Shown: positions 1 to 16,078 of the stretch, piece after piece
Position numbering within the stretch: position 1 is the first letter of the stretch
Layout: every line of letters begins with the position of its first letter
Assembly (NCBI RefSeq): GCF_016904955.1
Contig: NZ_JADIKE010000035.1
Coordinates: 310,001-374,000 of the forward strand
Direction of reading: 5' to 3'
From: Dyella flava
Lineage (GTDB): Bacteria > Pseudomonadota > Gammaproteobacteria > Xanthomonadales > Rhodanobacteraceae
DNA: 64,000 nt
Made by a program: the position numbers and the translations under genes
Notes under the pieces: generated by a model
Databases searched by the model: none
Seen by the model: the letters and a program-made list of their open reading frames with translations, nothing else
What the model was told of the DNA's origin: nothing

Positions 1-1
1 C

Positions 2-1411
2 TTTACCGCCATCCCCGCCGATCGCCCCTATCGCAGCCAACCCCTGCCCTGGCCCAGCATCAACGGCCTGCTGCCCGCGCGCATCGTCTCGCCGGGCAAC
101 TATAAGTACGCCTATCTCACCCAGGACGGCGAGTACCGCGTGCAGCTGCCCTTCGACCTGGACAGCTGGAGCCCCGGCGGCAGCAGCCGCCCGGTACGTC
201 TGGCCAAACCCTACAGCGGCCGCGACTACGGCCATCACTTCCCGCTGATCGACGGCGCGGAAGTCATCCTGGGCTTTACCCAGGGCGATCCGGATCGCCC
301 CACCATCGTCGGCGCCGTGCACAACAGCCAGCGCACGGATCTGGTCACCCACCAGAACAACACCCGCAACCTGATCCGCACCGCCGCCGGTAACGAGCTA
401 CGCATGGAGGATTACCAGGGCGTTGAACACATCCATCTCAGTACGCCCACCCAGACCAGCGAACTCAACCTGGGGCATATGGTGGATGGGCAGAACACGC
501 CGCGCGGCATCGGGGCGGAGCTGCGTACCGATGGGCATGCCAGTGTGCGGGCGGCCAAAGGCGTGTTCGTCAGTGCCGATGCGCAGCCGGGGGCCCATGG
601 CCAGCAATTGGAGATGCAGGCGGCCATCGGGCAACTGCAACAGGCGCTCGCACAGACCCAGGCGCTGACGGAGGCGGCCCAGGCCGCCCAAGCCATCGCC
701 GCCGATTACCGCAAGCAAAAAGACTTGTTCGAGCAATCACTCGATCAGCTGAAAAAGGCGGGCATCCTGATCAGTGCGCCCGATGGCATCGGCCTCACCA
801 CCGGCGGCTCGCTGCAACTCAACGCCGCGCAAAACCTCATCGCCAGCGCTGGCGGCCATCTCGATGTCGGGGTCATGAAGCGCATCACCGTGGCAGCAGG
901 CGAGTTGGTCTCGGTGTTCGCGCAGAAGCTCGGCATCAAATTATTTGCCGCCAAGGGCAAGGTGGAGATTCAGGCGCAGAGCGATGCGATGCAACTGCTG
1001 GCGGACCAGAACATGACCATCACCAGCGTCAACGGCCGGGTCACGATCGAGGCCAAGGACGAATTGCTGCTCAAATGCGGCGGCTCCTATTTCCGCATGT
1101 CCGCCACCGGCATCGAGGAAGGTACGCGTGGTGATCGCACGATCAAGTCGGCGGCGTTCGCCCGGCAAGGGCCTTCATTCGTGGCACAACACATGAACAG
1201 TCTTCCGAGCACGGCCTTCAATGATCCCTACGTGCTCCGCAGCAAGATCACCGGCGAAGTGCTCAAACAGCAGCCATACGAAATCGTTCGCGCAGATGGC
1301 ACGCGCATCAAAGGCACTACCGATGACTTAGGGCGAACGAGCATACAGAAAAGCCACGATGTGGAAGATGTTGTGATCCGTGTGCCACCCCATCACGGAG
1401 GCTCGACATGA
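2..1411 (+). CDS. vgrG: T6SS spike protein VgrG, 3' part (5' end outside window)
   Basis: The reading frame is open from the first bases, so the N-terminal gp27-like part lies upstream of the window. What remains is the gp5-like OB region (short motifs such as RVQLPFDLD, GRDYGHHFPLIDG and GDPDRPTIVGAVH) followed by a long DUF2345-type C-terminal region (NLGHMVDGQ, GVFVSADAQ, TITSVNGRVTIEAKDE) that forms the beta-helical needle. VgrG trimers tip the Hcp tube and carry effectors into the target cell. The last ~80 residues are a small extension that may help bind cargo. The stop overlaps an ATG (ATGA), but that reading frame is only 19 codons long. The next real gene starts 46 bp downstream, and the whole run to 16 kb is co-directional, consistent with a vgrG-effector operon. 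Confidence 0.93.
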   Translation, partial: FTAIPADRPYRSQPLPWPSINGLLPARIVSPGNYKYAYLTQDGEYRVQLPFDLDSWSPGGSSRPVRLAKPYSGRDYGHHFPLIDGAEVILGFTQGDPDRPTIVGAVHNSQRTDLVTHQNNTRNLIRTAAGNELRMEDYQGVEHIHLSTPTQTSELNLGHMVDGQNTPRGIGAELRTDGHASVRAAKGVFVSADAQPGAHGQQLEMQAAIGQLQQALAQTQALTEAAQAAQAIAADYRKQKDLFEQSLDQLKKAGILISAPDGIGLTTGGSLQLNAAQNLIASAGGHLDVGVMKRITVAAGELVSVFAQKLGIKLFAAKGKVEIQAQSDAMQLLADQNMTITSVNGRVTIEAKDELLLKCGGSYFRMSATGIEEGTRGDRTIKSAAFARQGPSFVAQHMNSLPSTAFNDPYVLRSKITGEVLKQQPYEIVRADGTRIKGTTDDLGRTSIQKSHDVEDVVIRVPPHHGGST

Positions 1412-1456: not shown

Positions 1457-2800
1457 ATGGCGGTTGATTTCTCACTACTACCCTCCGAAGAACCTGCACA
1501 GATCAGCGCACCATCACGACCCGTCTGGACCATTGCCTTCTTCCTGATGGTGCTTGCCGGTGTTTTTGCCGTGCTGCTTTTCTGGCCGAAAGACATGCCA
1601 ACCCAAACATGGAAGTTTTGGACCAGCCTGGTGCTTTTTCCGATAGGCATCCCTGCGCTCATCGTGCTGCGCCGATACAGCATTTACGAAGGAGACCAAC
1701 TGGATGCTTCGTTACACAACGAAGCCGTGCGTGACTTCAACACTCGTGTTTTTGAAGCGGCAAGCACTCCGCTCGTGCTGATGGACGCGGCCCACCGCTT
1801 TTCTGCGGAGCCCGACAAGAACACCGCCAAGGCCGTCCGGGACGGCGCCGTAACCCTGACGTCTCAAGATCCCATCGCCAAGAAGGGGGAGCCCGTCAAA
1901 GCCCGTTGGCTGATAGTGCCTGGCATGCGCATCACGGCGGGTAAAGCTGAAGATGACCGCCATCGTCGCCAACAAGTGACAGTATGGCTGTTCAACGAAT
2001 TGCTGGACGAGGTTTTGCCGCGCATTGAGTCGCTTCCCGCCTGTATGCCCTTAACCATTCATCTGGCCCTGGCCAATGGGTTCACGCATGAAGAAAACCT
2101 GCATCTGTGGCGGCAATGCTGGCACGCCCGCTCGCTTCGCTCAGCGGACGTTACGCCTCCAAGCACAACGCCAGCCGACCTTATGTTGCTCGACACTTGG
2201 CTGGATCAGACGCTCGAGCAGGCACAGCTGCACGCCACACTTTTGGTGGCTATCCAATTACACCCCCTGCTTTCCGATGCACCGGATGCCGGCACCGCCG
2301 AGGCAGGCACGGCCCTGTTGCTGGTGCCAGAATCCTTAGCCACGCAGCATCGGTTGCCGCACATAGCCCACCTGCATCGTCCAGTGCAAAGCCTGCTCGA
2401 TCAACCGGGCGATGCACTTTCGCATGCCTTGCAATGGGCCGGCATTGAAGGTGCACACATCGCGACCGGCTGGCAGACCGGCTTGGATGTGGCGCAAGCG
2501 GGCGCGTTGATCGAACCGTCAAAGAAAATCGACCTCGCCGCTCGCATCACCGATCTCAACCAGACCGTGGGCCATGCAGGCGCTGCCGCGCCTTGGCTGG
2601 CCTTGGCATGCGCCGCCTCATCACTTTCGGAAGAAAAGCAACAAATCGTTCTCGTCGGCCAGAACAAACACATCCATTGCGCCGTGATGAAGCACGTGGG
2701 TACCGATGCGGCAACGCAGGCACCCGCGAACGAGGATTCGCGTGATCGCCTAGCCGCACCACACCTCCCTTCCCCGTCGATCTCGCAAGCCTATATGTAG
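1457..2800 (+). CDS. T6SS-associated two-TM protein, C-terminal half possibly thiolase-like; candidate effector adaptor
   Basis: This is a 447-residue protein. Two hydrophobic helices lie at about residues 23-43 and 52-70, followed by a large soluble region. The C-terminal part has stretches that recall ketosynthases: EAGTALLLVPE resembles the Gly-rich 'GEGA.ALVLE' segment, and QTVGHAGAAAPWLAL resembles the conserved 'GHt.gAAG' helix. No catalytic Cys context is evident. Thiolase-like proteins are known as adaptors that load T6SS effectors on VgrG, and the position between vgrG and the first lipase gene fits that role; both the fold and the role are inference. The gene stops 4 bp before the lipase ATG. 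Its last ~55 bp recur in front of lipase copies 2 and 3. The ATG at 1457 is preceded by an AGAGG-like ribosome-binding site. Confidence 0.6.
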   Translation: MAVDFSLLPSEEPAQISAPSRPVWTIAFFLMVLAGVFAVLLFWPKDMPTQTWKFWTSLVLFPIGIPALIVLRRYSIYEGDQLDASLHNEAVRDFNTRVFEAASTPLVLMDAAHRFSAEPDKNTAKAVRDGAVTLTSQDPIAKKGEPVKARWLIVPGMRITAGKAEDDRHRRQQVTVWLFNELLDEVLPRIESLPACMPLTIHLALANGFTHEENLHLWRQCWHARSLRSADVTPPSTTPADLMLLDTWLDQTLEQAQLHATLLVAIQLHPLLSDAPDAGTAEAGTALLLVPESLATQHRLPHIAHLHRPVQSLLDQPGDALSHALQWAGIEGAHIATGWQTGLDVAQAGALIEPSKKIDLAARITDLNQTVGHAGAAAPWLALACAASSLSEEKQQIVLVGQNKHIHCAVMKHVGTDAATQAPANEDSRDRLAAPHLPSPSISQAYM

Positions 2801-2804
2801 CCCT

Positions 2805-4694
2805 ATGAGCAACAGCACATCTGACACCAGCCGCTCCGCGCCCGATAGCAACACAGCGCCCAGCGCAGACAATGACGATGTCGTCCGGATCGTTGGCGGT
2901 TTCGACGACGACGGTACGCCTTACGCACGTGCCGTGCTCACCCCCAACGAAGATCAGCGCACCAAGGAAATTCTCGTTGATCATCGTCCCGCTATTCCGG
3001 TCATCTTCCTGCCCGGTGTGATGGGCACGTTGCTGTCAGACAAAACGACGGGTAAACCGGTGTGGTCTCCGCCGAATCTGGATGCTATAGGCTCCGGCAT
3101 CGTTGGCGTCGCGTCGGTTCTTGCAGGCTGGCCCGTTGGCGCGGCCAAGCGCGCCAAGCACTTCGACCCTGATCAGGCCGTGGTTGATCCGCGCGGCCCC
3201 ATCAAGCTCGGCAACAGTGGACTTACCGAAGAGGAAGCCCGTCGGCGCGGCTGGGGAGCACTGCATCGCTGGAGCTATCAGCCCACGTTGGCGTGGCTCG
3301 AATATACACTCAACCATCCCATGCTCGCCGGCCTTCCACATGGTGAATGGGTGCAGGGCGATGCGGAGGGTGTCCACGCCGCCTTGAAAGCCGTGCTGGG
3401 CACCGACCCTGCCGACTATGGCGGCTACGGCCAAGGCCGTCAGATCGATGCTAACTCGGAAGCTTTCAAGTCGCTGGTCCGCTATCGCTACCGCGTTTAC
3501 GCCATCGGCTACAACTGGTTGAAGTCCAATGACATCTCCGGCAAACAGGTGCTGGATGGATTCGATTACACGGATCAGAAGACGAAGAAAGTCACCCGTG
3601 TCATGGGCATTCGTGAGATATGCCGTGAAAACAACGTCGAAAAGGCCATCATTATCACGCACTCCATGGGTGGACTGGTGGCACGCATGGCCTCGCAGTT
3701 CCACGGCGGCGCCGATGCAATTTATGGCGTCATCCACGGTGCACAACCGGCCACGGGCGCTCCGCTGTTCGCCAAGCGTTTTCGCACCGGCGCAGAAGGC
3801 ACCACCTTCCAAGACCGTCTAGCCAACCAAAGCCTGCTGGGTCGCAATGCGGCGGAATTTGTGGCCGTGGCCAGCAGTGCGGAGGGACCAATGGAATTGG
3901 CGCCGATGCCGGATTACATCGATGGCGCACCCTGGTGGATTTTTACTGACAAGAAAGGCAAAGAGATTATGGCGTTGCCCGAGGACAGCGCATTGGACGA
4001 AATCTATATCAATGACAAATGGTACGCCTTGCTACCGGACAGCTCCTTGCTCGATCCCGCGGGCATAGTGAAGAAAAAGCTGGAAGAACAAAGGAATCCT
4101 GCTTGCATGCACGATTACTTCAAGCAGGTAATGGCCGACGTAGTTGATCGACAAAAACGGTTAAGAAACAACTATCACCCAAACACCTATGCCATCTACG
4201 GAAATGGCGAACTAACGAAAGCTAGTGCGATCAACCAGGAGCCGCCAAAGCTGGAAACCAGTGCGCCCGAAGAGAAGCTGATGACCTGGGGCAAGGTGGT
4301 ATGGCAAGGCGATTTCCCCGAAGGAGTGGATGAGAAGCAATTGAAAGCAGCGCAACTCGTTCACGACAATCACAAAGGGGAGCTAACTATCATCGTGGGT
4401 GGGCGCACGGTCAAGGTCACCGTACAACAGAAAGCCATTGCTCAGAAAAATGGAGAAAGAGATAACGGCATTATCGCGGGTGACGGCACCGTACCGATCT
4501 GGTCTGCCGAAGCGCAAGCTCGCGGAGTAACTCCGAACCTATCCATGGCCTCAGGTAAGGCTAAAGGCGTGCAGATGGTCTTCGTGCAGGGTGGATACGA
4601 GCATCAGTTTTGCTTCGATCACCCCTGGTCGCGCTGGGCCACGCTGTACAGCATGGCGCAAGTTGCGCACAGCATTAAGGCAAGATTTCAATGA
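2805..4694 (+). CDS. Tle4-like T6SS phospholipase effector, copy 1
   Basis: This 629-residue alpha/beta hydrolase has an oxyanion-type strand-turn VIFLPGVMGTLL at about 66-77 and the nucleophile elbow THSMGG with Ser near 287. YAIGYNWL near 232-239 recalls LCAT/PGAP1-type lipases. A His-rich C-terminal motif, GGYEHQFCFDHPW, probably contains the catalytic His. The first ~50 residues are polar and low-complexity. The family assignment rests on these motifs and on context: vgrG upstream, and a secreted Tli4-like partner overlapping by 4 bp (ATGA) downstream, as in the vgrG2-tplE-tplEi order of Pseudomonas aeruginosa. The predicted substrate is phospholipid of target-cell membranes. There is no signal peptide, as expected for a VgrG-delivered toxin. 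This copy differs from copies 2 and 3 throughout its length. Another lipase subfamily is possible. Confidence 0.85.
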   Translation: MSNSTSDTSRSAPDSNTAPSADNDDVVRIVGGFDDDGTPYARAVLTPNEDQRTKEILVDHRPAIPVIFLPGVMGTLLSDKTTGKPVWSPPNLDAIGSGIVGVASVLAGWPVGAAKRAKHFDPDQAVVDPRGPIKLGNSGLTEEEARRRGWGALHRWSYQPTLAWLEYTLNHPMLAGLPHGEWVQGDAEGVHAALKAVLGTDPADYGGYGQGRQIDANSEAFKSLVRYRYRVYAIGYNWLKSNDISGKQVLDGFDYTDQKTKKVTRVMGIREICRENNVEKAIIITHSMGGLVARMASQFHGGADAIYGVIHGAQPATGAPLFAKRFRTGAEGTTFQDRLANQSLLGRNAAEFVAVASSAEGPMELAPMPDYIDGAPWWIFTDKKGKEIMALPEDSALDEIYINDKWYALLPDSSLLDPAGIVKKKLEEQRNPACMHDYFKQVMADVVDRQKRLRNNYHPNTYAIYGNGELTKASAINQEPPKLETSAPEEKLMTWGKVVWQGDFPEGVDEKQLKAAQLVHDNHKGELTIIVGGRTVKVTVQQKAIAQKNGERDNGIIAGDGTVPIWSAEAQARGVTPNLSMASGKAKGVQMVFVQGGYEHQFCFDHPWSRWATLYSMAQVAHSIKARFQ

Positions 4695-5806
4695 TCTTTC
4701 ATCCGCTCTCTTCGTGCTTAGTGAGTGTTCTCTTTTCTCTTTCGATATATGTGTTGACCTCCATCGCGTGGACAGTTTCTGCGGAGCCCCTAATGAACAA
4801 TAACCCCTTACTTGCCGATTCTCGTCCATGGTGCATTGGTCGTTTCGTCATCGATCGCCCAGCGCACAGTGAGATTTCCGCCGAGGAGTATCGGTATTGG
4901 GGCGACAAAGTCGACATCACCAGAAACGTCACCATTGGAACCTTCGAATACAAAGTCAAGGCTCGTGAAAATGAGTTGAAGAACTACAAACGCACAAATT
5001 CCATTTCCTATAAAGAAATGTTAGCAAAAGGACTAGATTCCATGATCTTGGAAACGGAGGTTCCATGGCTGGAAAAGACCTCCTCCCCAACACCAACTTC
5101 TCGCCTCTTTATTTTCAGGAGACGCGTAGATCATCCAGATCTGCTCATCGATGAAGAGGGATATCTACTTGCGGGAAGCACAATGCTCACCATGAAATCA
5201 CCGCTCCGCCCAAGTGACATCGAGAAATCCATCGAGCGAACAACCGACATCTACAGGAACATCACCTATCGCGATGACTGGACCGTTCCTGCCGAACGAG
5301 GTTTCTGCATCAATGGCGCCCTGATCGGCGGCCCTTCGCGTAATAGCGAAGACGTCACACAATCCATCATTTTGATGCCGGGACGTCGCTCCTTGCTTGT
5401 GATCCAAATGAGCGCGGCCATCGAGGGTGATCCCGACACGTCGCTACTCGAGGCCTTACCCGACTTAAAACAACAATTACACAACCAAGGCTATAGCCAC
5501 TACGTCCACATCCTTCGAAAAGGCAAACGCCAAGTAGCTGGCATGGACGCAGAAGAAGTTCTGCTCTCGATCAGGGACGGCAAGACACAACTGTTCCGCT
5601 TCTATCTACTTGCACCCGGCAACCCCGCAACGACAGCCCAACCCCGTATCGACATTCAATTGGAGCTTGGTGACGCGTTGACCGATTATGACAAGGAGCA
5701 GAGCGAAACGCAGGAAACCATGTCCTCGCCTGTCGATGAAGCCGGCGCGATCCAGGCGTGGGACACGCTACTGAACAGCATGCGTTTGCGGCCAGGGGCG
5801 ATGTAA
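4691..5806 (+). CDS. Tli4-like periplasmic immunity protein, copy 1
   Basis: This 371-residue protein starts with a signal peptide (hydrophobic core LVSVLFSLSIYVLTSIAW, cleavage likely after TVSA near residue 31), so it should act in the periplasm, where an incoming lipase would be met. Shared family motifs are PWCIGRFVIDRP near 46-57 and FCINGALIGGPSRNSE in the second half. These match the general plan of Tle4 immunity proteins (Tli4 N- and C-terminal domains). It overlaps the lipase gene by 4 bp (ATGA), implying translational coupling. The gene is visibly more AT-rich than the housekeeping genes nearby. The final ~30 residues, ending LRPGAM, are almost invariant among the three copies. Confidence 0.85.
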   Translation: MIFHPLSSCLVSVLFSLSIYVLTSIAWTVSAEPLMNNNPLLADSRPWCIGRFVIDRPAHSEISAEEYRYWGDKVDITRNVTIGTFEYKVKARENELKNYKRTNSISYKEMLAKGLDSMILETEVPWLEKTSSPTPTSRLFIFRRRVDHPDLLIDEEGYLLAGSTMLTMKSPLRPSDIEKSIERTTDIYRNITYRDDWTVPAERGFCINGALIGGPSRNSEDVTQSIILMPGRRSLLVIQMSAAIEGDPDTSLLEALPDLKQQLHNQGYSHYVHILRKGKRQVAGMDAEEVLLSIRDGKTQLFRFYLLAPGNPATTAQPRIDIQLELGDALTDYDKEQSETQETMSSPVDEAGAIQAWDTLLNSMRLRPGAM

Positions 5807-6996
5807 CGACGCGTTGCTGGCGATATCGAGCGCGTAGCTTCGCAGCGCCGGTAGATAGCCTTCTGTTCGCAACGGGCCTATTTGCTTGCGCACACCATGA
5901 ATCCACTAATAAAACCACGCGCAATCACGCAGCGCATCACACCTCCCTTCCCCGTCGATCTCGCAAGCCTATGTGTAGCCCTATGAGCAACAGCACATCT
6001 GACACCAGCCGCTCCGCGCCCGATAGCAACACAGCGCCCAGCGCAGACAATGACGATGTCGTCCGAATCGCTGGCGGGTTCGACGACGACGGTACGCCTT
6101 ACGCACGCGCCGTGCTCACGCCCAACGACGATCAGCGCACCAAAGAAATTCTGATCGATCATCGCCCCGCTATTCCGGTCATCTTCCTGCCCGGTGTGAT
6201 GGGCACGTTGCTGTCAGACAAGACCACCGGAAAATTCGTGTGGTATCCACCCAATATGGACGCCGTGGGCTCCGCTATTTCCGGCATTGCATCCGTCATA
6301 GCCGGACGATTCGCCAGCCCCGCCGCACGCGCGAAACGCTTCGATCCGCAGAACGCCGTGGTCGATCCCACCGGTCCGGTTATGGTCGGTAATAGCGGCC
6401 TGACCGAGGACGAAGCTCGTCGGCGTGGTTGGAGCACCGTGCATCGTTGGAGTTATCAGCCGACGTTGGCCTGGCTCGAATATACGCTCAACCATCCCAT
6501 GCTCGCCGGCCTTCCCCATGGCGAATGGGCGCAGGGTGATGCGGAGGGAGCCAAAGCCGCCCTGAAAGCCGTGCTGGGTACCGATCCGGCGGACTACGGC
6601 GCTTATGGATCCGGCGGCTCCATCGACGCCAACTCCGACGTATTCAAGTCGCTGCTCCGTTATCGCTACACCGTCTATGCCATTGGCTACAACTGGCTTC
6701 AATCGAACCAGAAGTCGGGCGAGGACGTGTTGAATGGCCTTGATTTCAAAGACCAGAAAACGAAAAAGACCACCCGCATCATGGGCATCCGCGAAATCTG
6801 CCGGGAAAACAAAACAGAGAAGGCGATCATCATCACCCACTCGATGGGCGGCCTGGTCGCACGCATGGCTTGCCAATTTTCGGACGGTGCCAAAGACATG
6901 TACGGCGTGATCCACGGTGCGCAACCGGCCACGGGGGCGCCTCTGTTCGCCAAGCGTTTTCGCACGGGTGCTGAAGGCACCACTTTCAAGGACAGG
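5741..6996 (+). repeat. Direct repeat, unit A: end of tli4-1, spacer, first 338 codons of tle4-2
   Basis: This 1256-bp stretch recurs 3178 bp downstream at 8919-10174 and appears identical base for base on reading. It covers the last ~20 codons of the immunity gene, a 176-bp spacer and the 5' half of the next lipase gene. The identity stops at a C/T difference at 6997 versus 10175 (Leu to Phe). Confidence 0.9.
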
Positions 6997-7875
6997 CTCG
7001 CCAATAAAAGCTTGCTAGGCGCTGATGACGCCCAATTTGTCGCGGTAGCAAGCAACGCGGAGGGGCCTATGGAATTGGCGCCGATGCCTGATTACTACGA
7101 TGGCAAGCCGTGGTGGATTTTTGTGGATAAGAACGGCAAGGAGCGTATGGCATTGCCACAACAAAGTGCCCTCGACGAGATTTACCTCTGCGACAAATGG
7201 TATGGCCTATTGCCTGACAGCTCCTTGCTGGACCCTGCGGGAGTAGTAAAAGAAAGATTGGACAAAGAGAAACATCCGCCAAGCGTTCTCAAAAACTTCA
7301 AAGACACGATGCGCGCAGTGGTCAAGCGACAGGACAAATTACGTAACTACTACCACCGCAACACCTATGCAATGTACGGAAATGGCGCGCTAGAAGCAAA
7401 GCCTACCGATGGCAACCAAGAAGCACCGAAGCTGGAATTCAGTCAGCCAGACGAGAAGCTGACAACCTGGGGCACGGTGATTTGGCAGGGCGACATTCCC
7501 GACGGCGTTGAGGAAGATGAATTGAACACCGCCCAACTGGTCTATGACGATCACCATGGCGTGCTCAAGCTTATGGTAGCCAGCAGGATCATAACGCTCA
7601 CGGTGCAGCAGAAAGCCATCGCACCGAAGAAGGGAGAAAGAAATAATGGCATCGTCAAAGGTGACGGCACCGTGCCGATCTTCTCCGCCGAGGCGCAAGC
7701 TCGCGGCGTGACCTCCTCCCTGTCAATGGTTTCTGGTAAAGCCGAGGGTGTACAGATGGTCTTTGTGCAGGGTGGCTACGAACATCAATTTTGCTTCGAC
7801 CATCCTTGGTCGCGCTGGACCACGCTGTACAGCATGGCTCAGATCGCGCACAGCATTAAGGCAGATATCCAATGA
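5983..7875 (+). CDS. Tle4-like T6SS phospholipase effector, copy 2
   Basis: This 630-residue protein has the same architecture as copy 1: PGVMGT strand-turn, YAIGYNWL, nucleophile elbow THSMGG, and C-terminal YEHQFCFDHPW with Asp at residue 606. The ATG at 5983 was chosen because it aligns with the copy-1 start (MSNSTSDTSR). The frame stays open upstream to 5758, but that part is the spacer and the end of the preceding gene. Residues 1-338 are encoded by DNA identical to copy 3. From about residue 425 onward the two copies differ strongly, so the copies probably differ in the surface seen by the partner immunity protein. It overlaps its own tli4 gene by 4 bp. Confidence 0.85.
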   Translation: MSNSTSDTSRSAPDSNTAPSADNDDVVRIAGGFDDDGTPYARAVLTPNDDQRTKEILIDHRPAIPVIFLPGVMGTLLSDKTTGKFVWYPPNMDAVGSAISGIASVIAGRFASPAARAKRFDPQNAVVDPTGPVMVGNSGLTEDEARRRGWSTVHRWSYQPTLAWLEYTLNHPMLAGLPHGEWAQGDAEGAKAALKAVLGTDPADYGAYGSGGSIDANSDVFKSLLRYRYTVYAIGYNWLQSNQKSGEDVLNGLDFKDQKTKKTTRIMGIREICRENKTEKAIIITHSMGGLVARMACQFSDGAKDMYGVIHGAQPATGAPLFAKRFRTGAEGTTFKDRLANKSLLGADDAQFVAVASNAEGPMELAPMPDYYDGKPWWIFVDKNGKERMALPQQSALDEIYLCDKWYGLLPDSSLLDPAGVVKERLDKEKHPPSVLKNFKDTMRAVVKRQDKLRNYYHRNTYAMYGNGALEAKPTDGNQEAPKLEFSQPDEKLTTWGTVIWQGDIPDGVEEDELNTAQLVYDDHHGVLKLMVASRIITLTVQQKAIAPKKGERNNGIVKGDGTVPIFSAEAQARGVTSSLSMVSGKAEGVQMVFVQGGYEHQFCFDHPWSRWTTLYSMAQIAHSIKADIQ

Positions 7876-8984
7876 CCTGTAGCTTCAGCGCTTTCCGCGC
7901 ACTGTGCCTATCTCTCTTTTTCTTGGTGAATGGCCTATCCGCATTTGCGCGAACGGCCCATGTGGAGCCTATGATGACTGATAACCCCTTACTTTCCGAT
8001 CCTCGCCCGTGGTGCATCGGCCGTTTCGTCATCGATCGTCCAACTCATAGTGAGGTAAGTTACGAAAAATACGAATTCTGGGGAGACAAGATCAACATCA
8101 TCAATAACGTCAGTCTTGGAACATTCCAACACAAGGCCAGTGAGCGTGAAGATGAACTAAGAAAGAAGAGGCGCACCATCCTCATCCCATATAAAGAATC
8201 GGTAAAAAGAGGTTTGCCGAATGGGGTTCTTGAAACCGACGCCTCGTGGCTAGAAAAGGTCTTATCGCCGACTCAAAATTCTCGCCTTTTTATTTTCAAA
8301 GAGGACGGAGAAAGCGATGCCTCATTTAGTGCCGACGGCTATGTACTGGCTGGCACAACAATGCTAACGATGAAGTCTTCTGTCGCAGACGATGGCGTAC
8401 AGAAGTTTATCGACCTTACAACCGCTGAATATCAAAGCATCACCTACCGCGAAAACTGGACCGTCCCCGCAGAACGCGGCTTCTGTATCAACGGCGCTCT
8501 AATCGGTGGCCCTTCACGCAACAGCGAAGTCGCCGAACAAACCATTTCTATGATACCTGGCAAGCCCTCTTTGTTCGTTATAAAAATGCGCGATGCGGTT
8601 GAGGCAGATCGGAAATTCTCATTACTAAAGACACTGCCTGATCTACGCAATGACCTCAAAGAGAGAGGTTACAGCCACAACGTGCGCGTCCTGCGCGAAG
8701 GAAATCGCCAAGTAGCCGGTATGGATGCTGAGGAAGTATTGCTCTCGATCAAAGATGGAGAAACGCAAGTGTTCCAATTCTACTTGCAGGCCCCAGGCAA
8801 TCCCGACACAACCGCACAACCGCACACCGAAATTCAACTATTGCTAGGCGACGAACTCTCCGACGCTGACAAAGACAGCGGCATGAAGCCAGAAGACATG
8901 TCCTCGCCTGTCGACGAGGCCGGCGCGATCCAGGCGTGGGACACGCTACTGAACAGCATGCGTTTGCGGCCAGGGGCGATGTAA
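7872..8984 (+). CDS. Tli4-like periplasmic immunity protein, copy 2
   Basis: This 370-residue protein has an N-terminal signal peptide (core LCLSLFFLVNGLSAFA), then PWCIGRFVIDRPTHSE and a second half with FCINGALIGGPSRNSE. It overlaps the upstream lipase by 4 bp. Its second half (about residue 198 on) is nearly the same as copy 3, while the first half differs at many positions. The first half is therefore the better candidate for the part that distinguishes the partner toxin. Its final codons lie in the second unit of the 1.26-kb direct repeat. Codon use is AT-rich compared with the flanking core genome. Confidence 0.85.
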   Translation: MTCSFSAFRALCLSLFFLVNGLSAFARTAHVEPMMTDNPLLSDPRPWCIGRFVIDRPTHSEVSYEKYEFWGDKINIINNVSLGTFQHKASEREDELRKKRRTILIPYKESVKRGLPNGVLETDASWLEKVLSPTQNSRLFIFKEDGESDASFSADGYVLAGTTMLTMKSSVADDGVQKFIDLTTAEYQSITYRENWTVPAERGFCINGALIGGPSRNSEVAEQTISMIPGKPSLFVIKMRDAVEADRKFSLLKTLPDLRNDLKERGYSHNVRVLREGNRQVAGMDAEEVLLSIKDGETQVFQFYLQAPGNPDTTAQPHTEIQLLLGDELSDADKDSGMKPEDMSSPVDEAGAIQAWDTLLNSMRLRPGAM

Positions 8985-10174
8985 CGACGCGTTGCTGGCG
9001 ATATCGAGCGCGTAGCTTCGCAGCGCCGGTAGATAGCCTTCTGTTCGCAACGGGCCTATTTGCTTGCGCACACCATGAATCCACTAATAAAACCACGCGC
9101 AATCACGCAGCGCATCACACCTCCCTTCCCCGTCGATCTCGCAAGCCTATGTGTAGCCCTATGAGCAACAGCACATCTGACACCAGCCGCTCCGCGCCCG
9201 ATAGCAACACAGCGCCCAGCGCAGACAATGACGATGTCGTCCGAATCGCTGGCGGGTTCGACGACGACGGTACGCCTTACGCACGCGCCGTGCTCACGCC
9301 CAACGACGATCAGCGCACCAAAGAAATTCTGATCGATCATCGCCCCGCTATTCCGGTCATCTTCCTGCCCGGTGTGATGGGCACGTTGCTGTCAGACAAG
9401 ACCACCGGAAAATTCGTGTGGTATCCACCCAATATGGACGCCGTGGGCTCCGCTATTTCCGGCATTGCATCCGTCATAGCCGGACGATTCGCCAGCCCCG
9501 CCGCACGCGCGAAACGCTTCGATCCGCAGAACGCCGTGGTCGATCCCACCGGTCCGGTTATGGTCGGTAATAGCGGCCTGACCGAGGACGAAGCTCGTCG
9601 GCGTGGTTGGAGCACCGTGCATCGTTGGAGTTATCAGCCGACGTTGGCCTGGCTCGAATATACGCTCAACCATCCCATGCTCGCCGGCCTTCCCCATGGC
9701 GAATGGGCGCAGGGTGATGCGGAGGGAGCCAAAGCCGCCCTGAAAGCCGTGCTGGGTACCGATCCGGCGGACTACGGCGCTTATGGATCCGGCGGCTCCA
9801 TCGACGCCAACTCCGACGTATTCAAGTCGCTGCTCCGTTATCGCTACACCGTCTATGCCATTGGCTACAACTGGCTTCAATCGAACCAGAAGTCGGGCGA
9901 GGACGTGTTGAATGGCCTTGATTTCAAAGACCAGAAAACGAAAAAGACCACCCGCATCATGGGCATCCGCGAAATCTGCCGGGAAAACAAAACAGAGAAG
10001 GCGATCATCATCACCCACTCGATGGGCGGCCTGGTCGCACGCATGGCTTGCCAATTTTCGGACGGTGCCAAAGACATGTACGGCGTGATCCACGGTGCGC
10101 AACCGGCCACGGGGGCGCCTCTGTTCGCCAAGCGTTTTCGCACGGGTGCTGAAGGCACCACTTTCAAGGACAGG
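8919..10174 (+). repeat. Direct repeat, unit B: end of tli4-2, spacer, first 338 codons of tle4-3
   Basis: This is the second unit of the 1256-bp direct repeat (first unit 5741-6996, offset 3178 bp). Lack of silent changes over this length points to recent duplication or gene conversion. It is long enough for RecA-dependent recombination, which could delete or amplify one effector-immunity module. Confidence 0.9.
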
Positions 10175-11053
10175 TTCGCCAATAAAAGCCTACTGGGTGC
10201 CGATGACGCTCAATTTGTTGCTGTCGCGAGCAACGCCGAAGGGCCGATGGAGTTGGCGCCGATGCCTGATTACTACGATGGCAAGCCGTGGTGGATTTTT
10301 GTGGATAAGAACGGCAAGGAGCGTATGGCATTGCCACAACAAAGTGCTCTCGACGAGATTTACCTCTGCGACAAATGGTATGGCTTGTTACCGGATAGTT
10401 CTTTGCTGGATCCAGCGGGAATTGTGCGAGAGAAGCTCAAAAAAGAGAATAGGAACACGAGCGTACATGAAAACTTTCAGAAGACACTGCTTGCAGTGGC
10501 TCACAGGCAAGAATTGCTGCGTAACAACTATCATCCAAATACCTATGCGATGTACGGAAACGGCGCTCTCGAACCCAAAACTTCCGATGGAAGCGAAAAG
10601 TCTTCAAAGCTGGAATTCAGTCATCCAGGCGACAAGCTGACAACTTGGGGAACGGTGATTTGGCAAGGTGACATTCCCGATGGCGCTGGGGAAGATGAAC
10701 TGAAAACCGCCCAACTGATCCATGACGATCATCATGGTGTGCTCAAGATATTGGTAGCTGGCCAGACCGTAACGTTCACCGTGCAGCAGAAAGCCATCGC
10801 ACCGAAGGGGGGAGAAATAGATAACGGCATCGTCAAAGGTGACGGCACCGTACCGATCTTTTCTGCCGAATCGCAAGCTCGTGGAGTAATCCCCGCCCTG
10901 TCGATGGCTTCGAGTAAAGCCGAGGGTGTGCAGATGGTCTTTGTGCAGGGTGGCTACGAGCATCAGTTTTGCTTCGCTCACCCTTGGTCGCGCTGGGCCA
11001 CGTTGTACAGCATGGCCAAGATTGCGCACAGCATCAAAGCGAAAGTCCAATGA
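9161..11053 (+). CDS. Tle4-like T6SS phospholipase effector, copy 3
   Basis: This 630-residue protein is essentially a copy-2 N-terminal half joined to a diverged C-terminal third. The catalytic elbow THSMGG is intact. In the C-terminal motif it reads FCFAHPW where copies 1 and 2 read FCFDHPW, so residue 606 is Ala instead of Asp; whether this affects activity is unknown. The start at 9161 aligns with the other copies. The frame is open upstream to 8936 only because the preceding spacer lacks stops. It ends in an ATGA overlap with its immunity gene. Confidence 0.85.
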   Translation: MSNSTSDTSRSAPDSNTAPSADNDDVVRIAGGFDDDGTPYARAVLTPNDDQRTKEILIDHRPAIPVIFLPGVMGTLLSDKTTGKFVWYPPNMDAVGSAISGIASVIAGRFASPAARAKRFDPQNAVVDPTGPVMVGNSGLTEDEARRRGWSTVHRWSYQPTLAWLEYTLNHPMLAGLPHGEWAQGDAEGAKAALKAVLGTDPADYGAYGSGGSIDANSDVFKSLLRYRYTVYAIGYNWLQSNQKSGEDVLNGLDFKDQKTKKTTRIMGIREICRENKTEKAIIITHSMGGLVARMACQFSDGAKDMYGVIHGAQPATGAPLFAKRFRTGAEGTTFKDRFANKSLLGADDAQFVAVASNAEGPMELAPMPDYYDGKPWWIFVDKNGKERMALPQQSALDEIYLCDKWYGLLPDSSLLDPAGIVREKLKKENRNTSVHENFQKTLLAVAHRQELLRNNYHPNTYAMYGNGALEPKTSDGSEKSSKLEFSHPGDKLTTWGTVIWQGDIPDGAGEDELKTAQLIHDDHHGVLKILVAGQTVTFTVQQKAIAPKGGEIDNGIVKGDGTVPIFSAESQARGVIPALSMASSKAEGVQMVFVQGGYEHQFCFAHPWSRWATLYSMAKIAHSIKAKVQ

Positions 11054-12165
11054 ACCTTAGCGTACCCTCTTCGCGCGTGCTACCTGCACTTCTGTTTGTA
11101 TCACTGTTCAATCTTTCCACCTTTGCGCGGACGACCTCTGTGGAACCTATTATGAATAACAATCCCTTGCTTGCAGGCTCTCGCCCTTGGTGCATAGGTC
11201 GATTTGTAATTGACCGTCCCGCCCATAGCGAGATTGGCTATGAAAAGTATGAATTCACCGGCGACAAGATTGATATTACTCGAAACGTTAGCCTTGGAAC
11301 GTTTCAATACAAAGTCGACGCACGCGAAGATGAACTAAGGGAAAAGAAGCGCACCATTCTCATCCCGTATAAAGAATCAGTCAAAAGAGGGCTTCCAAAT
11401 GGGGTTGTGGGAACCGAAATACCGTGGCTGGAAAAGGCTGTTTCTCCGTCACAAACATCGCGTTTACTGATTTATAGGCAATATGGAGATCATCTGAATC
11501 TTCCGCTTGATGGAGAGGGGTACGTACTGACAGGAAGCACCATGCTTTCCATGAAATTCGATTTAGGAGGCAGCGTTATCCAAAAGGTCATCCTCGACGA
11601 AAGCGATTGGTACAGAAACGTTTCCTACCGCGATAACTGGGATATTCCCACCGAACGCGGCTTCTGCATCAACGGCGCCCTGATCGGCGGCCCTTCACGT
11701 AATAGCGAAGTTGCCGAGCAAACCATTTCTATGATACCTGGCAAGCCCTCTTTGTTCGTTATTAAAATGCGCGACGCGGTTGAGGCGGATCGGAAATTCT
11801 CATTACTAAAGACACTGCCTGATCTACGCAATGACCTCAAAGAGAGAGGTTACAGCCACAACGTACGCGTCCTGCGCGAAGGAAAACGCCAAGTGGCAGG
11901 CATGGACGCCGAGGAAGTGTTGTTGTCCATCAAAGATGGCAAAACGCAAGTATTCCAGTTTTATTTGCAGGCTCCAGGCGACCCCAACACAACCGCCCAG
12001 CCGCATACCGAAATCCAGCTGTTACTAGGCGACGAACTTTCCGACGCCGATAAAGACAGCGGCATGAAGCCAGAAGACATGTCCTCGCCTGTCGACGAGG
12101 CCGGCGCGATCCAAGCGTGGGACACGCTGCTCAACAGCATGCATTTGCGGCCGGGTGCCATGTGA
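11050..12165 (+). CDS. Tli4-like periplasmic immunity protein, copy 3
   Basis: This 371-residue protein starts at the ATG that overlaps the lipase stop; the same frame is open further upstream inside the lipase gene, but a start there would have no signal peptide. From 11050 the protein has a typical one (core VLPALLFVSLFNLSTFA). It carries the family motifs PWCIGRFVIDRP and FCINGALIGGPSRNSE. The second half is nearly identical to copy 2, and the first half partly resembles copy 1 (for example GDKIDITRNVSLGTFQYKV), suggesting mosaic exchange among the three genes. Confidence 0.85.
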   Translation: MNLSVPSSRVLPALLFVSLFNLSTFARTTSVEPIMNNNPLLAGSRPWCIGRFVIDRPAHSEIGYEKYEFTGDKIDITRNVSLGTFQYKVDAREDELREKKRTILIPYKESVKRGLPNGVVGTEIPWLEKAVSPSQTSRLLIYRQYGDHLNLPLDGEGYVLTGSTMLSMKFDLGGSVIQKVILDESDWYRNVSYRDNWDIPTERGFCINGALIGGPSRNSEVAEQTISMIPGKPSLFVIKMRDAVEADRKFSLLKTLPDLRNDLKERGYSHNVRVLREGKRQVAGMDAEEVLLSIKDGKTQVFQFYLQAPGDPNTTAQPHTEIQLLLGDELSDADKDSGMKPEDMSSPVDEAGAIQAWDTLLNSMHLRPGAM

Positions 12166-12574: not shown

Positions 12575-15500
12575 ATGACTAAACTACGGAAAGATCAGCT
12601 GTCCATTCTGATATTGGCGCTCCTCGCTATCGGCGCCATCCTGCTTTTCGGGGAACGCCTGGGTATCAAGACTCCGGACGAGCGAAGTATCTGGGTTTCA
12701 GCGGTAGCGCTTTGCTCCGTCGTGCTGACCATCATCGCTGGCCTCGAGCTTTGGGGCCGCTGGTCGGGAGCGAAGCATACACTTAGAAAATGGCTTCACC
12801 TTCGCCTGCCTGAAATGGTCGGCACCACGCAGGCCAGCGTGCTTGCGTCGCGTCAGGCGACCGCAGCGTCTTCGGACACCTTTGCTCTTCTTTTTCAGGA
12901 GCTGAAACGCCGCCACGGCTGGCACTGGCGTTATCGCGATCGCTGGCTGCTGGTGTGCGGCGATGACGCGGCGGTCGATGCCTTGGCACCGGCACTACGC
13001 AAGAACGGTTATGCCATCCACCCGGGCATGGTGTTGCTGCACACCGGCTACGGCGACACGCTCGACGCGACGCGATTGCACGCTATCGCCCGCATGCGTC
13101 GCCGCCGTCCCGTGGATGCGCTGGTGCAGGTTTTGCCCCATCAGGACGACGGCGCGACCTCGTTCCAGGTAGATGCCCTTTCCCAAGCATGGTTCTCGCA
13201 GGCCAACGCGCTGCGCTGGGCCGCGCCCACCTACGTGCTGAACGTCGTCACCGTCGACGGTGCCATGCCCGAGCAAGGCGAAGCGATTGCCTGCCTGTGG
13301 CAAGGCCGGGTCGAGGCGGAGCGGGAAATCGCCGCACTGACCGACCTGTCGCGCGTGCTGGCCGATACCGCCGTGCAGCGCATGAGCGAGCAGCGCCAGG
13401 TGCGTTACCTCGCGCAACTGTCGGGCTACATCGCCGCGCAGGCTGCCGCGTTGGTGGCGTGCCTGGCGCAGATCGGCCGTGGTTATCGCCGGCAGGCGCT
13501 TATCGCCGGTGTGCTGTTTGCGCCAGCCTTCAAGCCCAAGCCCGATCGCGTGGCGGGCTTCGATCACGCCGTGCCGTCGCATCAGGCCACCTGGGACACC
13601 ATCGCCGCGCACAGCCGACGTGTGCGTGGACACCGCATGGGTTTCTCGTGGCCGAGCGTGTGCGCCTGGGCCGTGACCGGCTGCGCGGTGGCGTGGCTGC
13701 TGGGTACGCTGGTGTCGTTCACGCTCAACCGCAACGCGATCGTGCGGGTGCAATCGGCGCTGCAAACGGTGCGCACCGCCACCACGCGCACGCAATCCTT
13801 GCAGGCGCTGGATGTCGTGCAAAAGCAGCTGGATACGCTGGAGGCACATCAGCCGCATGGCGCGCCGTGGCGCCTGCGTTTTGGTCTGAACCGCGACCGG
13901 GCCTTGCAAGCGGCGTTGTGGCCCTCGTATGCCGCGGCGAGCGCGCGTGCGCTGGTGCAGCCGTGGCGTGCCGAGCTGGAGCAGCGGCTGCAAAAGCTCG
14001 GCACCTTGTCCGACCAGGCCTTGGCGAGCGGTGGCGAGGATACGGTGAAAGGCGCGTATGCGGATCTGAAGGCCTATCTGATGCTGGCCGACCCCACGCA
14101 TGTCGAGGCGCCCTTCCTCACGCAACAGTGGCTGGCGGCATCCGCCGCGCAGCGTCCACGTGATACGTCGCTGAGCGGAGGGGCGTGGAACGACCTGATG
14201 CAGCATCTGGTCACCTTTCATGTGGAGCACCTGGCTCAGGCGCATCTGCCCGGAGGTGTCTCGTTGGCTGCGCCAGCCCAGCCGGCCCTGGTGAACGCGG
14301 CGCGGCAGACCTTGGTCGGGGTGATTGGCCTGCAGAATTCCACCGATGCGGTGTATCAGCAGATCCTGGCGGAGAACCGCGACAAGTATCCCCCGCTGTC
14401 CCTGCAAACGCTGCTGGGCGATAGCAGCAGCCGCGGCGTGTTCGCCACCTCGGAAACCGTGGCCGGCGTATTTACCCGCCATGCCTGGGATGAGCGCATC
14501 GGCAAGGCGATCGACCAAGCCGGTGCCACGCGCACGGTGGCGGGCGATTGGGTGCTGAGTGATAGCCGGGCTGCTTCTGCCGCACCCTCGGCCGATGCCC
14601 TGCGCACTGCGTTGCGCGAACGCTATTTCAGCGATTACGCACGCGCCTGGCAGCAGTTCCTCAACAGCGTGCGCTGGCAGCCGGAGGCCTCGCTGTCCGG
14701 CACCGTCGACCAGATGAACCTGCTGGCCGATCCGCAGCGTTCCCCGCTGTTGGCGTTGTTCAAGGTGATCGTGTATCAGGCCGGCACGGGGACGGAGGTG
14801 GCGTCGCTGTCCGATACGCTGGTGAACAAGGCCAAACAACTGGTGCACCGTGATGAACCCAATCCGTCCAGGAGCGCGGCGCCCGCCGATGCTTCACCGC
14901 TGGCCAACGCGTTCGGGCCACTGCTGCAACTGGCGGGCGGCGATGATACGGATGCAACGCGGAAGGAGGCGCTCAGCGCCGCCGGCAGCGACATCAGCCT
15001 GGCGCGGTATCTGGAGCGCGTGACAGCGGTGCGCCTGAAGCTGCAGCAGATCATGCTGAGCACCGATCCGGATGCGATGGCGCGGGTGACCGCGCAGGCC
15101 ATCCTGCAAGGCAGGACGTCCGAGCTGGCCGACAGCCGCGACTACGCCGGCCGGGTAGCGGCCAGCCTGGGGCAGCAATGGGGTGGCTTCGGCGATGCGC
15201 TGTTCCAGCGTCCGCTGGATCAGGCCTGGGATGCGGTGCTGACGCCGGCGGCGGCCAGCCTCAACGACACCTGGCGTAGCACCCTGTTATCGGACTGGCA
15301 TGCCAGCTTTGATGGGCGCTACCCCTTCGCCGATAGCGACAACGATGCATCGCTGCCGGAGCTCGCGCGCTTCCTGGCGGCGAACCACGGCGTGCTGATG
15401 CAGTTTGTGCAAACCCAGCTGGGTGGCATCCTGGAACGCCAGGGTGATCACTGGGTGGAAGTGCAAGGCGCGGGACGCCAGGCGCTGCACGTCGACCCGG

Positions 15501-16078
15501 CCTTTCTGGACGCGCTCAATCGCCTGCAACACACCGCCGGCGTGCTGTTTCCTTCCGCCGATTCACGCGTGCGCTACGAACTGCGTGCCGTGCCGACACC
15601 CGGCATCACGGACTTTTCCATCGTGCTGTCCGGCCGCCAGCTGCATTACTTCAACCAGCGCGAAGCCTGGATGCCGTTCGAGTGGCCTGGCGATGCGCTG
15701 GACAACCTCACCCGCATCGACTGGCAAACCCAGCAAGGCGGCTTGCGCTCCACGCTGGAATTCGAAGGCCGCTTCGGCCTGATCCGTTTGCTGGAGCGCG
15801 CCACGGTCAAGCAAGAGGACAGCGCCCGTTATCTGCTGACCTGGACGCCGTCGTTAGGCAGCACACCGGATCTGCGCGTGCAGTTGCGCAGCGAAACCGG
15901 TAAGGGACCGCTGGAGGTGTTGGCGCTGCGGCATTTTCTGTTGCCGACGCGCATTTTTAAGGGCAGCGACGCAGCACGGCGGGTCGCGGGCGGGCCCCTG
16001 CCACCCGAGGGCGTCGCCGCATCGGGCGAGGCGCCCTCTTCCAAGTTGCCGCGCATTGCACTGCCGGAAAGGGATTGA
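12575..16078 (+). CDS. TssM/IcmF-like T6SS membrane protein with degenerate NTPase motifs
   Basis: This protein is about 1167 residues long. Two helices near the N-terminus (ILILALLAIGAILLF and a second around residues 36-55), a third around 365-385 (VCAWAVTGCAVAWLLGTLV), and a long periplasmic C-terminal part reproduce the TssM layout. In the cytoplasmic domain, where TssM usually has a Walker A loop, the sequence is LLVCGDDAAVDAL. The Walker B/DTAGR position reads VLLHTGYGDTL, and the TKCD-like position reads VVTVDG. All three nucleotide-binding motifs are therefore lost. The ATG at 12575 is preferred because it puts the first helix at the N-terminus; the frame is open from a TTG at 12506. 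No tssL or tssJ is next to it. It may be a specialised or accessory paralogue. Confidence 0.75.
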   Translation: MTKLRKDQLSILILALLAIGAILLFGERLGIKTPDERSIWVSAVALCSVVLTIIAGLELWGRWSGAKHTLRKWLHLRLPEMVGTTQASVLASRQATAASSDTFALLFQELKRRHGWHWRYRDRWLLVCGDDAAVDALAPALRKNGYAIHPGMVLLHTGYGDTLDATRLHAIARMRRRRPVDALVQVLPHQDDGATSFQVDALSQAWFSQANALRWAAPTYVLNVVTVDGAMPEQGEAIACLWQGRVEAEREIAALTDLSRVLADTAVQRMSEQRQVRYLAQLSGYIAAQAAALVACLAQIGRGYRRQALIAGVLFAPAFKPKPDRVAGFDHAVPSHQATWDTIAAHSRRVRGHRMGFSWPSVCAWAVTGCAVAWLLGTLVSFTLNRNAIVRVQSALQTVRTATTRTQSLQALDVVQKQLDTLEAHQPHGAPWRLRFGLNRDRALQAALWPSYAAASARALVQPWRAELEQRLQKLGTLSDQALASGGEDTVKGAYADLKAYLMLADPTHVEAPFLTQQWLAASAAQRPRDTSLSGGAWNDLMQHLVTFHVEHLAQAHLPGGVSLAAPAQPALVNAARQTLVGVIGLQNSTDAVYQQILAENRDKYPPLSLQTLLGDSSSRGVFATSETVAGVFTRHAWDERIGKAIDQAGATRTVAGDWVLSDSRAASAAPSADALRTALRERYFSDYARAWQQFLNSVRWQPEASLSGTVDQMNLLADPQRSPLLALFKVIVYQAGTGTEVASLSDTLVNKAKQLVHRDEPNPSRSAAPADASPLANAFGPLLQLAGGDDTDATRKEALSAAGSDISLARYLERVTAVRLKLQQIMLSTDPDAMARVTAQAILQGRTSELADSRDYAGRVAASLGQQWGGFGDALFQRPLDQAWDAVLTPAAASLNDTWRSTLLSDWHASFDGRYPFADSDNDASLPELARFLAANHGVLMQFVQTQLGGILERQGDHWVEVQGAGRQALHVDPAFLDALNRLQHTAGVLFPSADSRVRYELRAVPTPGITDFSIVLSGRQLHYFNQREAWMPFEWPGDALDNLTRIDWQTQQGGLRSTLEFEGRFGLIRLLERATVKQEDSARYLLTWTPSLGSTPDLRVQLRSETGKGPLEVLALRHFLLPTRIFKGSDAARRVAGGPLPPEGVAASGEAPSSKLPRIALPERD

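What the first reader, a model, noticed from the sequence alone, without database searches (positions are those of the whole stretch)
12575..16078. TssM-like protein with all nucleotide-binding motifs lost, outside a core T6SS cluster
The positions of Walker A, Walker B and the G4-like motif read GDDAAVDAL, VLLHTGYG and VVTVDG. The TM layout and periplasmic part are kept and the frame is intact, so the gene is under selection. It could be an alternative membrane-complex part tied to this VgrG, or a dominant modulator.
Basis: partly seen in the sequence, partly recalled or inferred. Interest (0 to 1): 0.55.

Follow-up and report, generated by a model that had tools for sequence, protein, structure and literature searches.

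The report
Swappable secretion-anchor protein in toxin island
A soil bacterium keeps a second, intact copy of a type VI secretion anchor protein in a toxin island; the missing nucleotide-binding motifs are normal for its family, but its membrane-inserted front end has been exchanged together with an adaptor-like gene and the island's toxins, which hints at payload-specific docking.

Summary
The ORF and the three motif readings are real. Their absence is ordinary. The genome's one complete T6SS cluster has its own tssM, about 67 kb upstream (82% identical protein), which lacks the same motifs. So do all 67 TssMs aligned here (both own copies included) and the TssM of the solved complex (6HS7/6IXH). 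Motif loss does not make this copy special.

What does is that the protein is a mosaic. Residues 113-1167 match the core TssM (83%; dN/dS about 0.15 on either branch). Residues 1-112, which hold the first two presumed TM helices, are unrelated to the core copy and resemble TssMs of Tle4/Tli4 cassettes in Burkholderiales. Across 67 TssMs the front-end type largely ignores the body's phylogeny. It follows the type of a second cassette gene, DUFx, which has a predicted Tla3/thiolase-like fold (partial Mantel r 0.88, 0 of 2000 permutations), and more loosely the toxin family.

Best reading: a working alternative TssM carried by an exchangeable VgrG-effector cassette. Pairing of its hairpin with DUFx to dock that payload is inferred. 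Linkage alone is the main rival, as DUFx adjoins tssM in 61 of 62 loci. One prediction failed: an E. coli Tle4 cassette has a different hairpin type.

The parts
12575..16078 (+). tssM, island copy (1167 aa)
   Evidence: open frame and Pfam domains; 82% identical to the core-cluster TssM over residues 97-1167
12575..12910 (+). exchangeable front end of TssM, residues 1-112 (presumed TM1-TM2 hairpin and linker), type C
   Evidence: background-level similarity to own core TssM (0.06) but 0.25-0.44 to L052-L056 and L108; helices 2-25 and 34-76
12911..16075 (+). shared body of TssM, residues 113-1167
   Evidence: 83.8% DNA identity to the core copy, beginning within a nucleotide of this point; branch dN/dS about 0.153
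12911..13627 (+). degenerate GTPase-like domain, residues about 113-351
   Evidence: AF2 model mean pLDDT 87; matches to Galpha, Rag-like and Toc34 GTPases, best VIA Z 10.5
12959..12985 (+). Walker A position, reads GDDAAVDAL (no P-loop)
13031..13054 (+). Walker B / G3 position, reads VLLHTGYG
13244..13261 (+). G4 (TKxD) position, reads VVTVDG
1457..2800 (+). DUFx: Tla3/thiolase-like, presumed adaptor, with N-terminal presumed TM hairpin (447 aa)
   Evidence: AF2 mean pLDDT 91.7; Tla3 8YZ3 Foldseek E 6.8e-11, VIA Z 23.6; its four best matches are the DUFx of type-C cassettes
1..1411 (+). vgrG of the island, 3' part (gene starts at genome C33:308880, before the window)
   Evidence: 77% identical to the core VgrG over 770 aa
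2805..4694 (+). Tle4-like alpha/beta hydrolase effector 1
   Evidence: PGAP1-like domain; called Tle4-like from its Tli4 neighbour
4691..5806 (+). Tli4 immunity protein 1
   Evidence: Tli4_N and Tli4_C above cut-off
5758..7875 (+). Tle4-like effector 2 (ORF as listed; true start probably near 5983)
   Evidence: PGAP1-like domain; 77% identical to effector 1
7872..8984 (+). Tli4 immunity protein 2
   Evidence: Tli4_N and Tli4_C above cut-off
8936..11053 (+). Tle4-like effector 3 (ORF as listed; true start probably near 9161)
   Evidence: PGAP1-like domain; 92% identical to effector 2
10969..12165 (+). Tli4-like immunity protein 3
   Evidence: 75% identical to immunity protein 2

Best explanation
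This is a functional second TssM of a P-loop-less T6SS lineage, carried at the 3' end of an exchangeable VgrG-effector cassette (vgrG, Tla3-like DUFx, three Tle4/Tli4 pairs, tssM). Shown by sequence: its body is shared with the core TssM and kept by purifying selection; its TM1-TM2 front end comes from a different, cassette-bound pool; across relatives the front end changes together with DUFx. Inferred: the cassette was exchanged by homologous recombination, with the vgrG body and the tssM body as arms; the protein uses the core TssJ, TssL and baseplate; and the front-end hairpin pairs with the membrane-anchored DUFx, so that membrane complexes containing this TssM accept this VgrG with its Tle4 payload.
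For: Two TssM but one TssF and one TssL found in the genome. Branch dN/dS, by a simple three-sequence count, about 0.153 on the island branch and 0.150 on the core branch. DNA identity to the core copy starts within a nucleotide of the first body codon; an edge within 16 nt of that place is seen in 5 of 10 chosen pairs. Front-end type against the body tree (67 rows, 53 of them in types A-F): type C needs 7 changes for 7 members, D 6 for 6, E 5 for 5. Front end against DUFx: 240 of 242 pairs with like front ends have like DUFx, 28 of 1532 with unlike front ends do; partial Mantel given the body 0.88, 0 of 2000; within type A alone 0.638, 0 of 2000. Held-out check: 7 of 7 tssM fragments that had been left out and were looked at have front end and DUFx of one type; two of them are near-copies of rows in the set. 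Tle4 or Tli4 in 6 of 7 type-C loci and 0 of 57 others; the left-out L114, a Tle4/Tli4 cassette, is also type C. In this window DUFx ends 9.8 kb before tssM and still matches.
Against: DUFx ends within 500 nt of the tssM ORF in 61 of 62 loci, so joint inheritance may be linkage only; the separated pair in this window is the single exception. Toxin and front end are only loosely tied: within type A they do not correlate (0.128, 409 of 2000), and type-C L108 has no Tle4/Tli4 hit. Out of sample, an E. coli Tle4/Tli4 cassette has neither a type-C front end nor a type-C DUFx. A third VgrG locus in this genome has a DUFx-like gene but no TssM. No expression or interaction data; the hairpin-DUFx contact was not modelled.
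Confidence: 0.52

Rival explanations
1. Linked passenger: tssM is carried only because its body is the downstream recombination arm of the cassette. The front end and DUFx travel together because they are adjacent, and the island TssM is merely a redundant copy of the core subunit.
For: Homology tracts between a core and an island copy start at or inside the body and, in the own, G012 and P. sprentiae pairs, end 16-98 nt behind the stop codon. DUFx adjoins tssM in 61 of 62 loci. A pangenome survey of Ralstonia infers homologous recombination altering the toxin clusters at the main locus, one of whose variable regions lies upstream of tssM (PMC11481896, passages).
Against: Front end and DUFx also match in this window, where they lie 9.8 kb apart. 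The island copy is about as constrained as the core copy, which a spare arm need not be.
Confidence: 0.36
2. Dominant modulator or decoy: a TssM that poisons or tunes the core membrane complex because it cannot bind nucleotide.
For: It is an intact paralogue outside the core cluster.
Against: The core TssM lacks the same motifs, so there is no contrast in nucleotide binding. Purifying selection is about that on the core copy.
Confidence: 0.04
3. Decaying duplicate without function.
For: G012, a congener, has a tssM copy split into two frames, so copies can decay in this genus.
Against: Frame intact, branch dN/dS about 0.153.
Confidence: 0.05

Closest known systems
TssM of the solved TssJLM complex (PDB 6HS7, 6IXH; that these are enteroaggregative E. 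coli is recalled)
   Same: Same family over residues 108-1132 (phmmer E 1.2e-150); no Walker A either (alignment)
   Different: The front end of P0001 (residues 1-107) is not part of the match; in the two E. coli relatives viewed the gene lies in a tss cluster
NCBI 'ImcF-related family protein' of Burkholderiales and Enterobacterales T6SS clusters
   Same: Same lineage; a hypothetical protein gene directly before it, often with a PAAR gene before that, and tssA, tssF, tssG, tssJ mostly behind
   Different: Here no tssA, tssF, tssG or tssJ lies behind the gene
Tla3, T6SS adaptor of P. aeruginosa (PDB 8YZ3)
   Same: DUFx has its fold (VIA Z 23.6, rmsd 3.5, 277 residues, 17% identity) and lies in a vgrG/lipase cluster
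   Different: DUFx adds an N-terminal presumed TM hairpin; sequence link weak (E 0.012; Tla3_C in 1 of 53 members at E 0.071). Tla3 is called a cytoplasmic adaptor (PMC6560169, abstract and passages)
vgrG-linked toxin/immunity (aux) clusters of Ralstonia, T6SS subtype i4B2
   Same: Variable vgrG-lipase cluster upstream of tssM; recombination inferred by the authors (PMC11481896, passages)
   Different: The passages seen do not describe tssM itself, or its 5' end, as part of the exchanged unit

Membership tests
TssM / IcmF (T6SS membrane subunit) | IcmF-related, helical and C-terminal domains | tested here: met
   all three Pfam domains above cut-off
TssM / IcmF (T6SS membrane subunit) | NCBIfam equivalog TIGR03348 above its cut-off | tested here: not met
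   265 bits against a cut-off of 388; the core copy, inside a complete cluster, also fails at 286, so the shortfall is not peculiar to this copy
P-loop (ATP-binding) TssM | Walker A in the cytoplasmic domain | tested here: not met
   no GxxxxGK[ST] in the first 480 residues of 67 of 67 clade rows; present in 11 of 11 rows of the other lineage
P-loop-less TssM lineage of 6HS7 | similarity over most of the length, degenerate N-terminal domain included | tested here: met
   P0001 residues 108-1132 E 1.2e-150; N-terminal profile of 51 sequences E 7.6e-51
P-loop-less TssM lineage of 6HS7 | assembly with TssJ and TssL | not testable with these tools
   no interaction data
Tla3 adaptor (for DUFx) | thiolase-like Tla3 fold | tested here: met
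   Foldseek E 6.8e-11, VIA Z 23.6; ketosynthases score the same
Tla3 adaptor (for DUFx) | DUF2875 / Tla3 sequence domain | tested here: inconclusive
   no Pfam hit in the window protein; Tla3_C in 1 of 53 members at E 0.071; profile against 8YZ3 E 0.012
Tla3 adaptor (for DUFx) | binds the lipase effector and VgrG | not testable with these tools
   no interaction data
Tle4/Tli4 effector-immunity pair | Tli4 domains in the neighbour of an alpha/beta hydrolase | tested here: met
   Tli4_N and Tli4_C in window 4691-5806 and 7872-8984; PGAP1-like domain in the three effectors; the third immunity protein was compared by BLAST only

The most novel reading that the evidence does not exclude
The T6SS of this lineage builds payload-specific membrane complexes: each VgrG-effector cassette brings its own TssM front-end hairpin and a matching membrane-anchored Tla3-like adaptor on a common TssM body, so that the anchor, thought to be invariant, helps to choose which spike and toxin are loaded.
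Probability: 0.3. Interest if true: 0.82.

Novelty: new variant of a known kind. Interest (0 to 1): 0.57.

Why it matters
TssM is usually treated as a constant structural part of the T6SS, and toxins as the variable part. Here the 5' end of tssM belongs to the variable part. If the hairpin and DUFx are partners, the choice of payload is partly made at the inner membrane, and genomes can be read for matched sets of spike, toxin, adaptor and anchor. Even if it is linkage only, it explains why spare tssM genes lie at the ends of vgrG islands, and it warns against using whole-length TssM for phylogeny in this lineage.

Tried and rejected
Motif loss as a mark of a special paralogue: rejected, because the core copy, the aligned clade and the solved prototype lack the motifs too. 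Pfam and NCBIfam for DUFx: no hit in the window protein; the fold comparison was needed. The T6SS subtype of this genome was not tested.

Prediction that a Tle4 cassette implies a type-C front end: held in 6 of 7 type-C loci and in none of the 57 other loci with cargo, and in the left-out L114, but failed in E. coli B1172, whose front end and DUFx match none of the types. Tie between toxin and front end inside type A: not found.

Limits of the sample. The loci are the best 80 (79 distinct) of 363 relatives of one scan with a clade alignment, plus own, congener and plasmid loci, so they lean to Burkholderiales. Of 95 TssM ORFs of 250 aa or more, 15 under 1000 aa were dropped, then 11 rows of the other lineage and 2 rows without a front end, leaving 67, both own copies among them. 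Seven of the dropped fragments were looked at afterwards. 62 rows had a recognisable DUFx and 64 some cargo. Types come from single linkage at a normalised score of 0.2, with the same groups at 0.25. The body tree is a quick one and warns of long branches. Mantel permutations do not fully remove relatedness. The ten pairs were chosen by me (seven within one genome, three between species; L054 is in two). Labels core 30, island 22, partial 15 say whether tblastn with mostly Dyella references found TssA, or else TssF or TssG, anywhere in the locus; ten rows were labelled by hand, L162 as core though no tssA is listed near it. 5 of 67 loci had under 5 kb downstream, and one 'island' row (L161) is a tandem module inside a core cluster.

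Literature: ten searches; among the titles and abstract beginnings listed (30 of 49, 15 of 71) I saw no report of tssM copies in vgrG islands or of an exchanged TssM front end. The library lacks most subscription papers.

Full report
Observation. window:12575-16078 is an intact 1167-aa frame with the three IcmF domains of TssM above their Pfam cut-offs and no Pfam N-terminal NTPase domain at E up to 1. The predicted N-terminal model (mean pLDDT 87) has two N-terminal helices, a mixed alpha/beta domain and a third long helix. That domain resembles GTPases: Foldseek best E 2.9e-4, VIA-align best Z 10.5 to a Galpha chain, 167 residues at 3.9 A. It is best called a degenerate GTPase-like domain; the match is modest. 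In 23 of 51 aligned sequences the IcmF-related_N domain of Pfam is still found at E up to 1 (best 1.4e-8), so the domain is divergent rather than replaced.

The motif loss is ordinary. The genome holds one complete T6SS cluster at C33:232054-260305, and searches found one TssF and one TssL. Its TssM reads GDDAVVDAV, VLLHAGSG and VVNVDG at the corresponding positions and is 82% identical to the finding over residues 97-1167. In 67 aligned TssMs, both own copies included, no Walker A pattern occurs in the first 480 residues; in 11 of 11 TssMs of the other lineage fetched by the same scan it does. The TssM of the solved membrane complex, entries 6IXH and 6HS7, is of the same family (E 1.2e-150 over residues 108-1132) and also lacks it. 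That these entries are enteroaggregative E. coli is recalled; a review passage describes that organism's cryo-EM structure (PMC10433429, passages). In Agrobacterium, by contrast, ATP binding and hydrolysis by TssM are described as important (PMC3953482, passages). A DNA search with part of a Cronobacter tssM of this lineage matched 1321 of 5426 complete E. coli genomes, 66 of them over at least 80% of its length; 7 of the 8 rows listed are named 'ImcF-related family protein'.

The island. From genome C33:308880 to 326078 lie vgrG, DUFx, three Tle4-like/Tli4 pairs and tssM. In the congener G003 the same site, between the signal peptidase II gene and the next conserved gene, has about 0.44 kb where this genome has about 18.4 kb. 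The effector pairs are tandem copies (effectors 76-92% identical, immunity proteins 59-75%).

The mosaic. Island and core TssM share residues 113 to the end at 83% identity, but residues 1-112 score at the shuffled background (0.06; background mean 0.053). DNA identity begins within a nucleotide of the first body codon. On the body, with G003 as third sequence, the island branch shows 46 nonsynonymous and 102 synonymous changes and the core branch 40.5 and 91.5: dN/dS about 0.153 and 0.150. The island copy is kept about as carefully as the core copy. In G012 a core and an island copy are 99.5% identical in DNA over 3090 nt, from 10 nt before the body to 16 nt behind the stop codon; upstream there are only shorter matches of 67-75%. 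In Paraburkholderia sprentiae two modules vgrG - effector genes - PAAR - DUFx - tssM stand in tandem inside one core cluster, with bodies 94% identical and front ends unlike. Of ten chosen pairs, five have the edge within 16 nt of the same codon; in the other five the BLAST match starts 136-676 nt further in. In E. coli, PapRG-06-5 and the tssM remnant of UTME-3 are 98% identical in the body, from about 45 nt before it, with different front ends.

Front ends as a shared pool. The 67 front ends fall into six types of 5-21 members, three pairs and eight single ones. The window's front end is type C, with L052-L056 and L108 from Ralstonia, Cupriavidus, Caballeronia, Paraburkholderia and Herbaspirillum, whose bodies are only 38-41% identical to it. 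On the body tree, type C needs 7 changes for 7 members, D 6 for 6, E 5 for 5, B 7 for 9, A 8 for 21, F 3 for 5; together 24 changes against a shuffled mean of 29.5 (as low in 0 of 200). So some clustering remains, mainly in A and F, but the front end largely ignores the body's history.

What goes with the front end. DUFx goes with it: Mantel 0.887, 0.88 given the body (0 of 2000 permutations), while DUFx and body given the front end are unrelated (0.026, 605 of 2000). 240 of 242 like pairs match; 28 of 1532 unlike pairs do. The correlation persists within type A (0.638, 0 of 2000), B (0.737, 1 of 2000) and the five members of F (0.963, 34 of 2000), and both halves of DUFx follow it (hairpin part 0.728, C-terminal domain 0.867). 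Seven tssM fragments that had been dropped served as a held-out check: in 7 of 7 the front end and the best DUFx have one type, two of the seven being near-copies of rows in the set. Cargo follows more loosely: some homologous cargo in 162 of 228 like and 101 of 1667 unlike pairs; with body identity under 45%, 77 of 102 and 67 of 943. Tle4 or Tli4 occurs in 6 of 7 type-C loci and 0 of 57 others, and in the held-out L114, whose front end is type C. DUFx ends within 500 nt of the tssM ORF in 61 of 62 loci; the exception is this window, where DUFx sits behind vgrG, 9.8 kb before tssM with all three effector pairs between, and still has the DUFx of type-C loci L052, L056, L053 and L054 as its four best matches.

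What DUFx is. The 447-aa model (mean pLDDT 91.7) has two N-terminal helices, presumably a TM hairpin, and a thiolase/ketosynthase-like domain. Tla3 (8YZ3) is among the top matches: Foldseek E 6.8e-11, VIA Z 23.6, tied with ketosynthases. Tla3 is required to load the lipase Tle3 onto VgrG2b in P. aeruginosa (PMC6560169, abstract and passages). An adaptor role for DUFx is therefore plausible, not shown.

Copies outside core clusters are common in the sample. Of 67 rows, 30 are labelled core, 15 have a TssF or TssG match without TssA, and 22 have none of the three (flanks), with the cautions given under Tried and rejected. Several genomes carry two or three loci.

Against the reading. An E. coli Tle4/Tli4 cassette (B1172) has a front end and DUFx unlike any type here. 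E. coli PapRG-06-5 fits the weaker rule: both its front end (0.26) and its DUFx (0.35) match Cronobacter L162 best. A third VgrG locus in this genome has a DUFx-like gene and no TssM. Linkage could produce most of the pattern; the separated pair in this window is one case.

Conclusion. The motif loss is a family trait. The unusual thing is an intact alternative TssM whose front end belongs to an exchangeable toxin cassette and changes together with an adaptor-like membrane protein. In the listings of ten literature searches I saw no such report, within a library that lacks most subscription papers.

Noticed in passing
G000 C33:237015-238694 (L003:1015-2694, - strand): OmpA-family protein of the core cluster (559 aa) whose region after the N-terminal helices looks, by eye only, like the degenerate TssM N-terminal domain.
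   Followed up: no
L167:2956-11140 (G000 C36): Third VgrG locus with an effector-like 673-aa ORF, a lipoprotein-like ORF, a 492-aa DUFx-like protein with an extra hydrophobic C-terminal hairpin and a separate 143-aa hairpin-like protein, but no TssM.
   Followed up: partly
window 2805-12165: Three tandem Tle4-like/Tli4 pairs; effectors 2 and 3 are 92% identical while their immunity proteins are 75% identical.
   Followed up: no
L043:8609-11864 (G012): A third tssM copy split into two frames, behind a cassette whose ORFs resemble those of the core cassette; its front end and DUFx score 1.0 against the core ones.
   Followed up: partly
L065, L081, L097, L112, L116 after tssM: Burkholderia and Paraburkholderia loci in which tssM is followed by TssF and TssJ matches but no TssA or TssG match: perhaps modules that also carry baseplate parts.
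   Followed up: no
L170:6496-10720 (E. coli UTME-3): T6SS remnant next to an IS3 element whose tssM is 98% identical to that of PapRG-06-5 in the body but has a different front end.
   Followed up: partly
L003:8032-10974 (core vgrG): The VgrG of the core cluster carries an N-terminal glucosaminidase domain; the island VgrG was not scanned for one over its full length.
   Followed up: no
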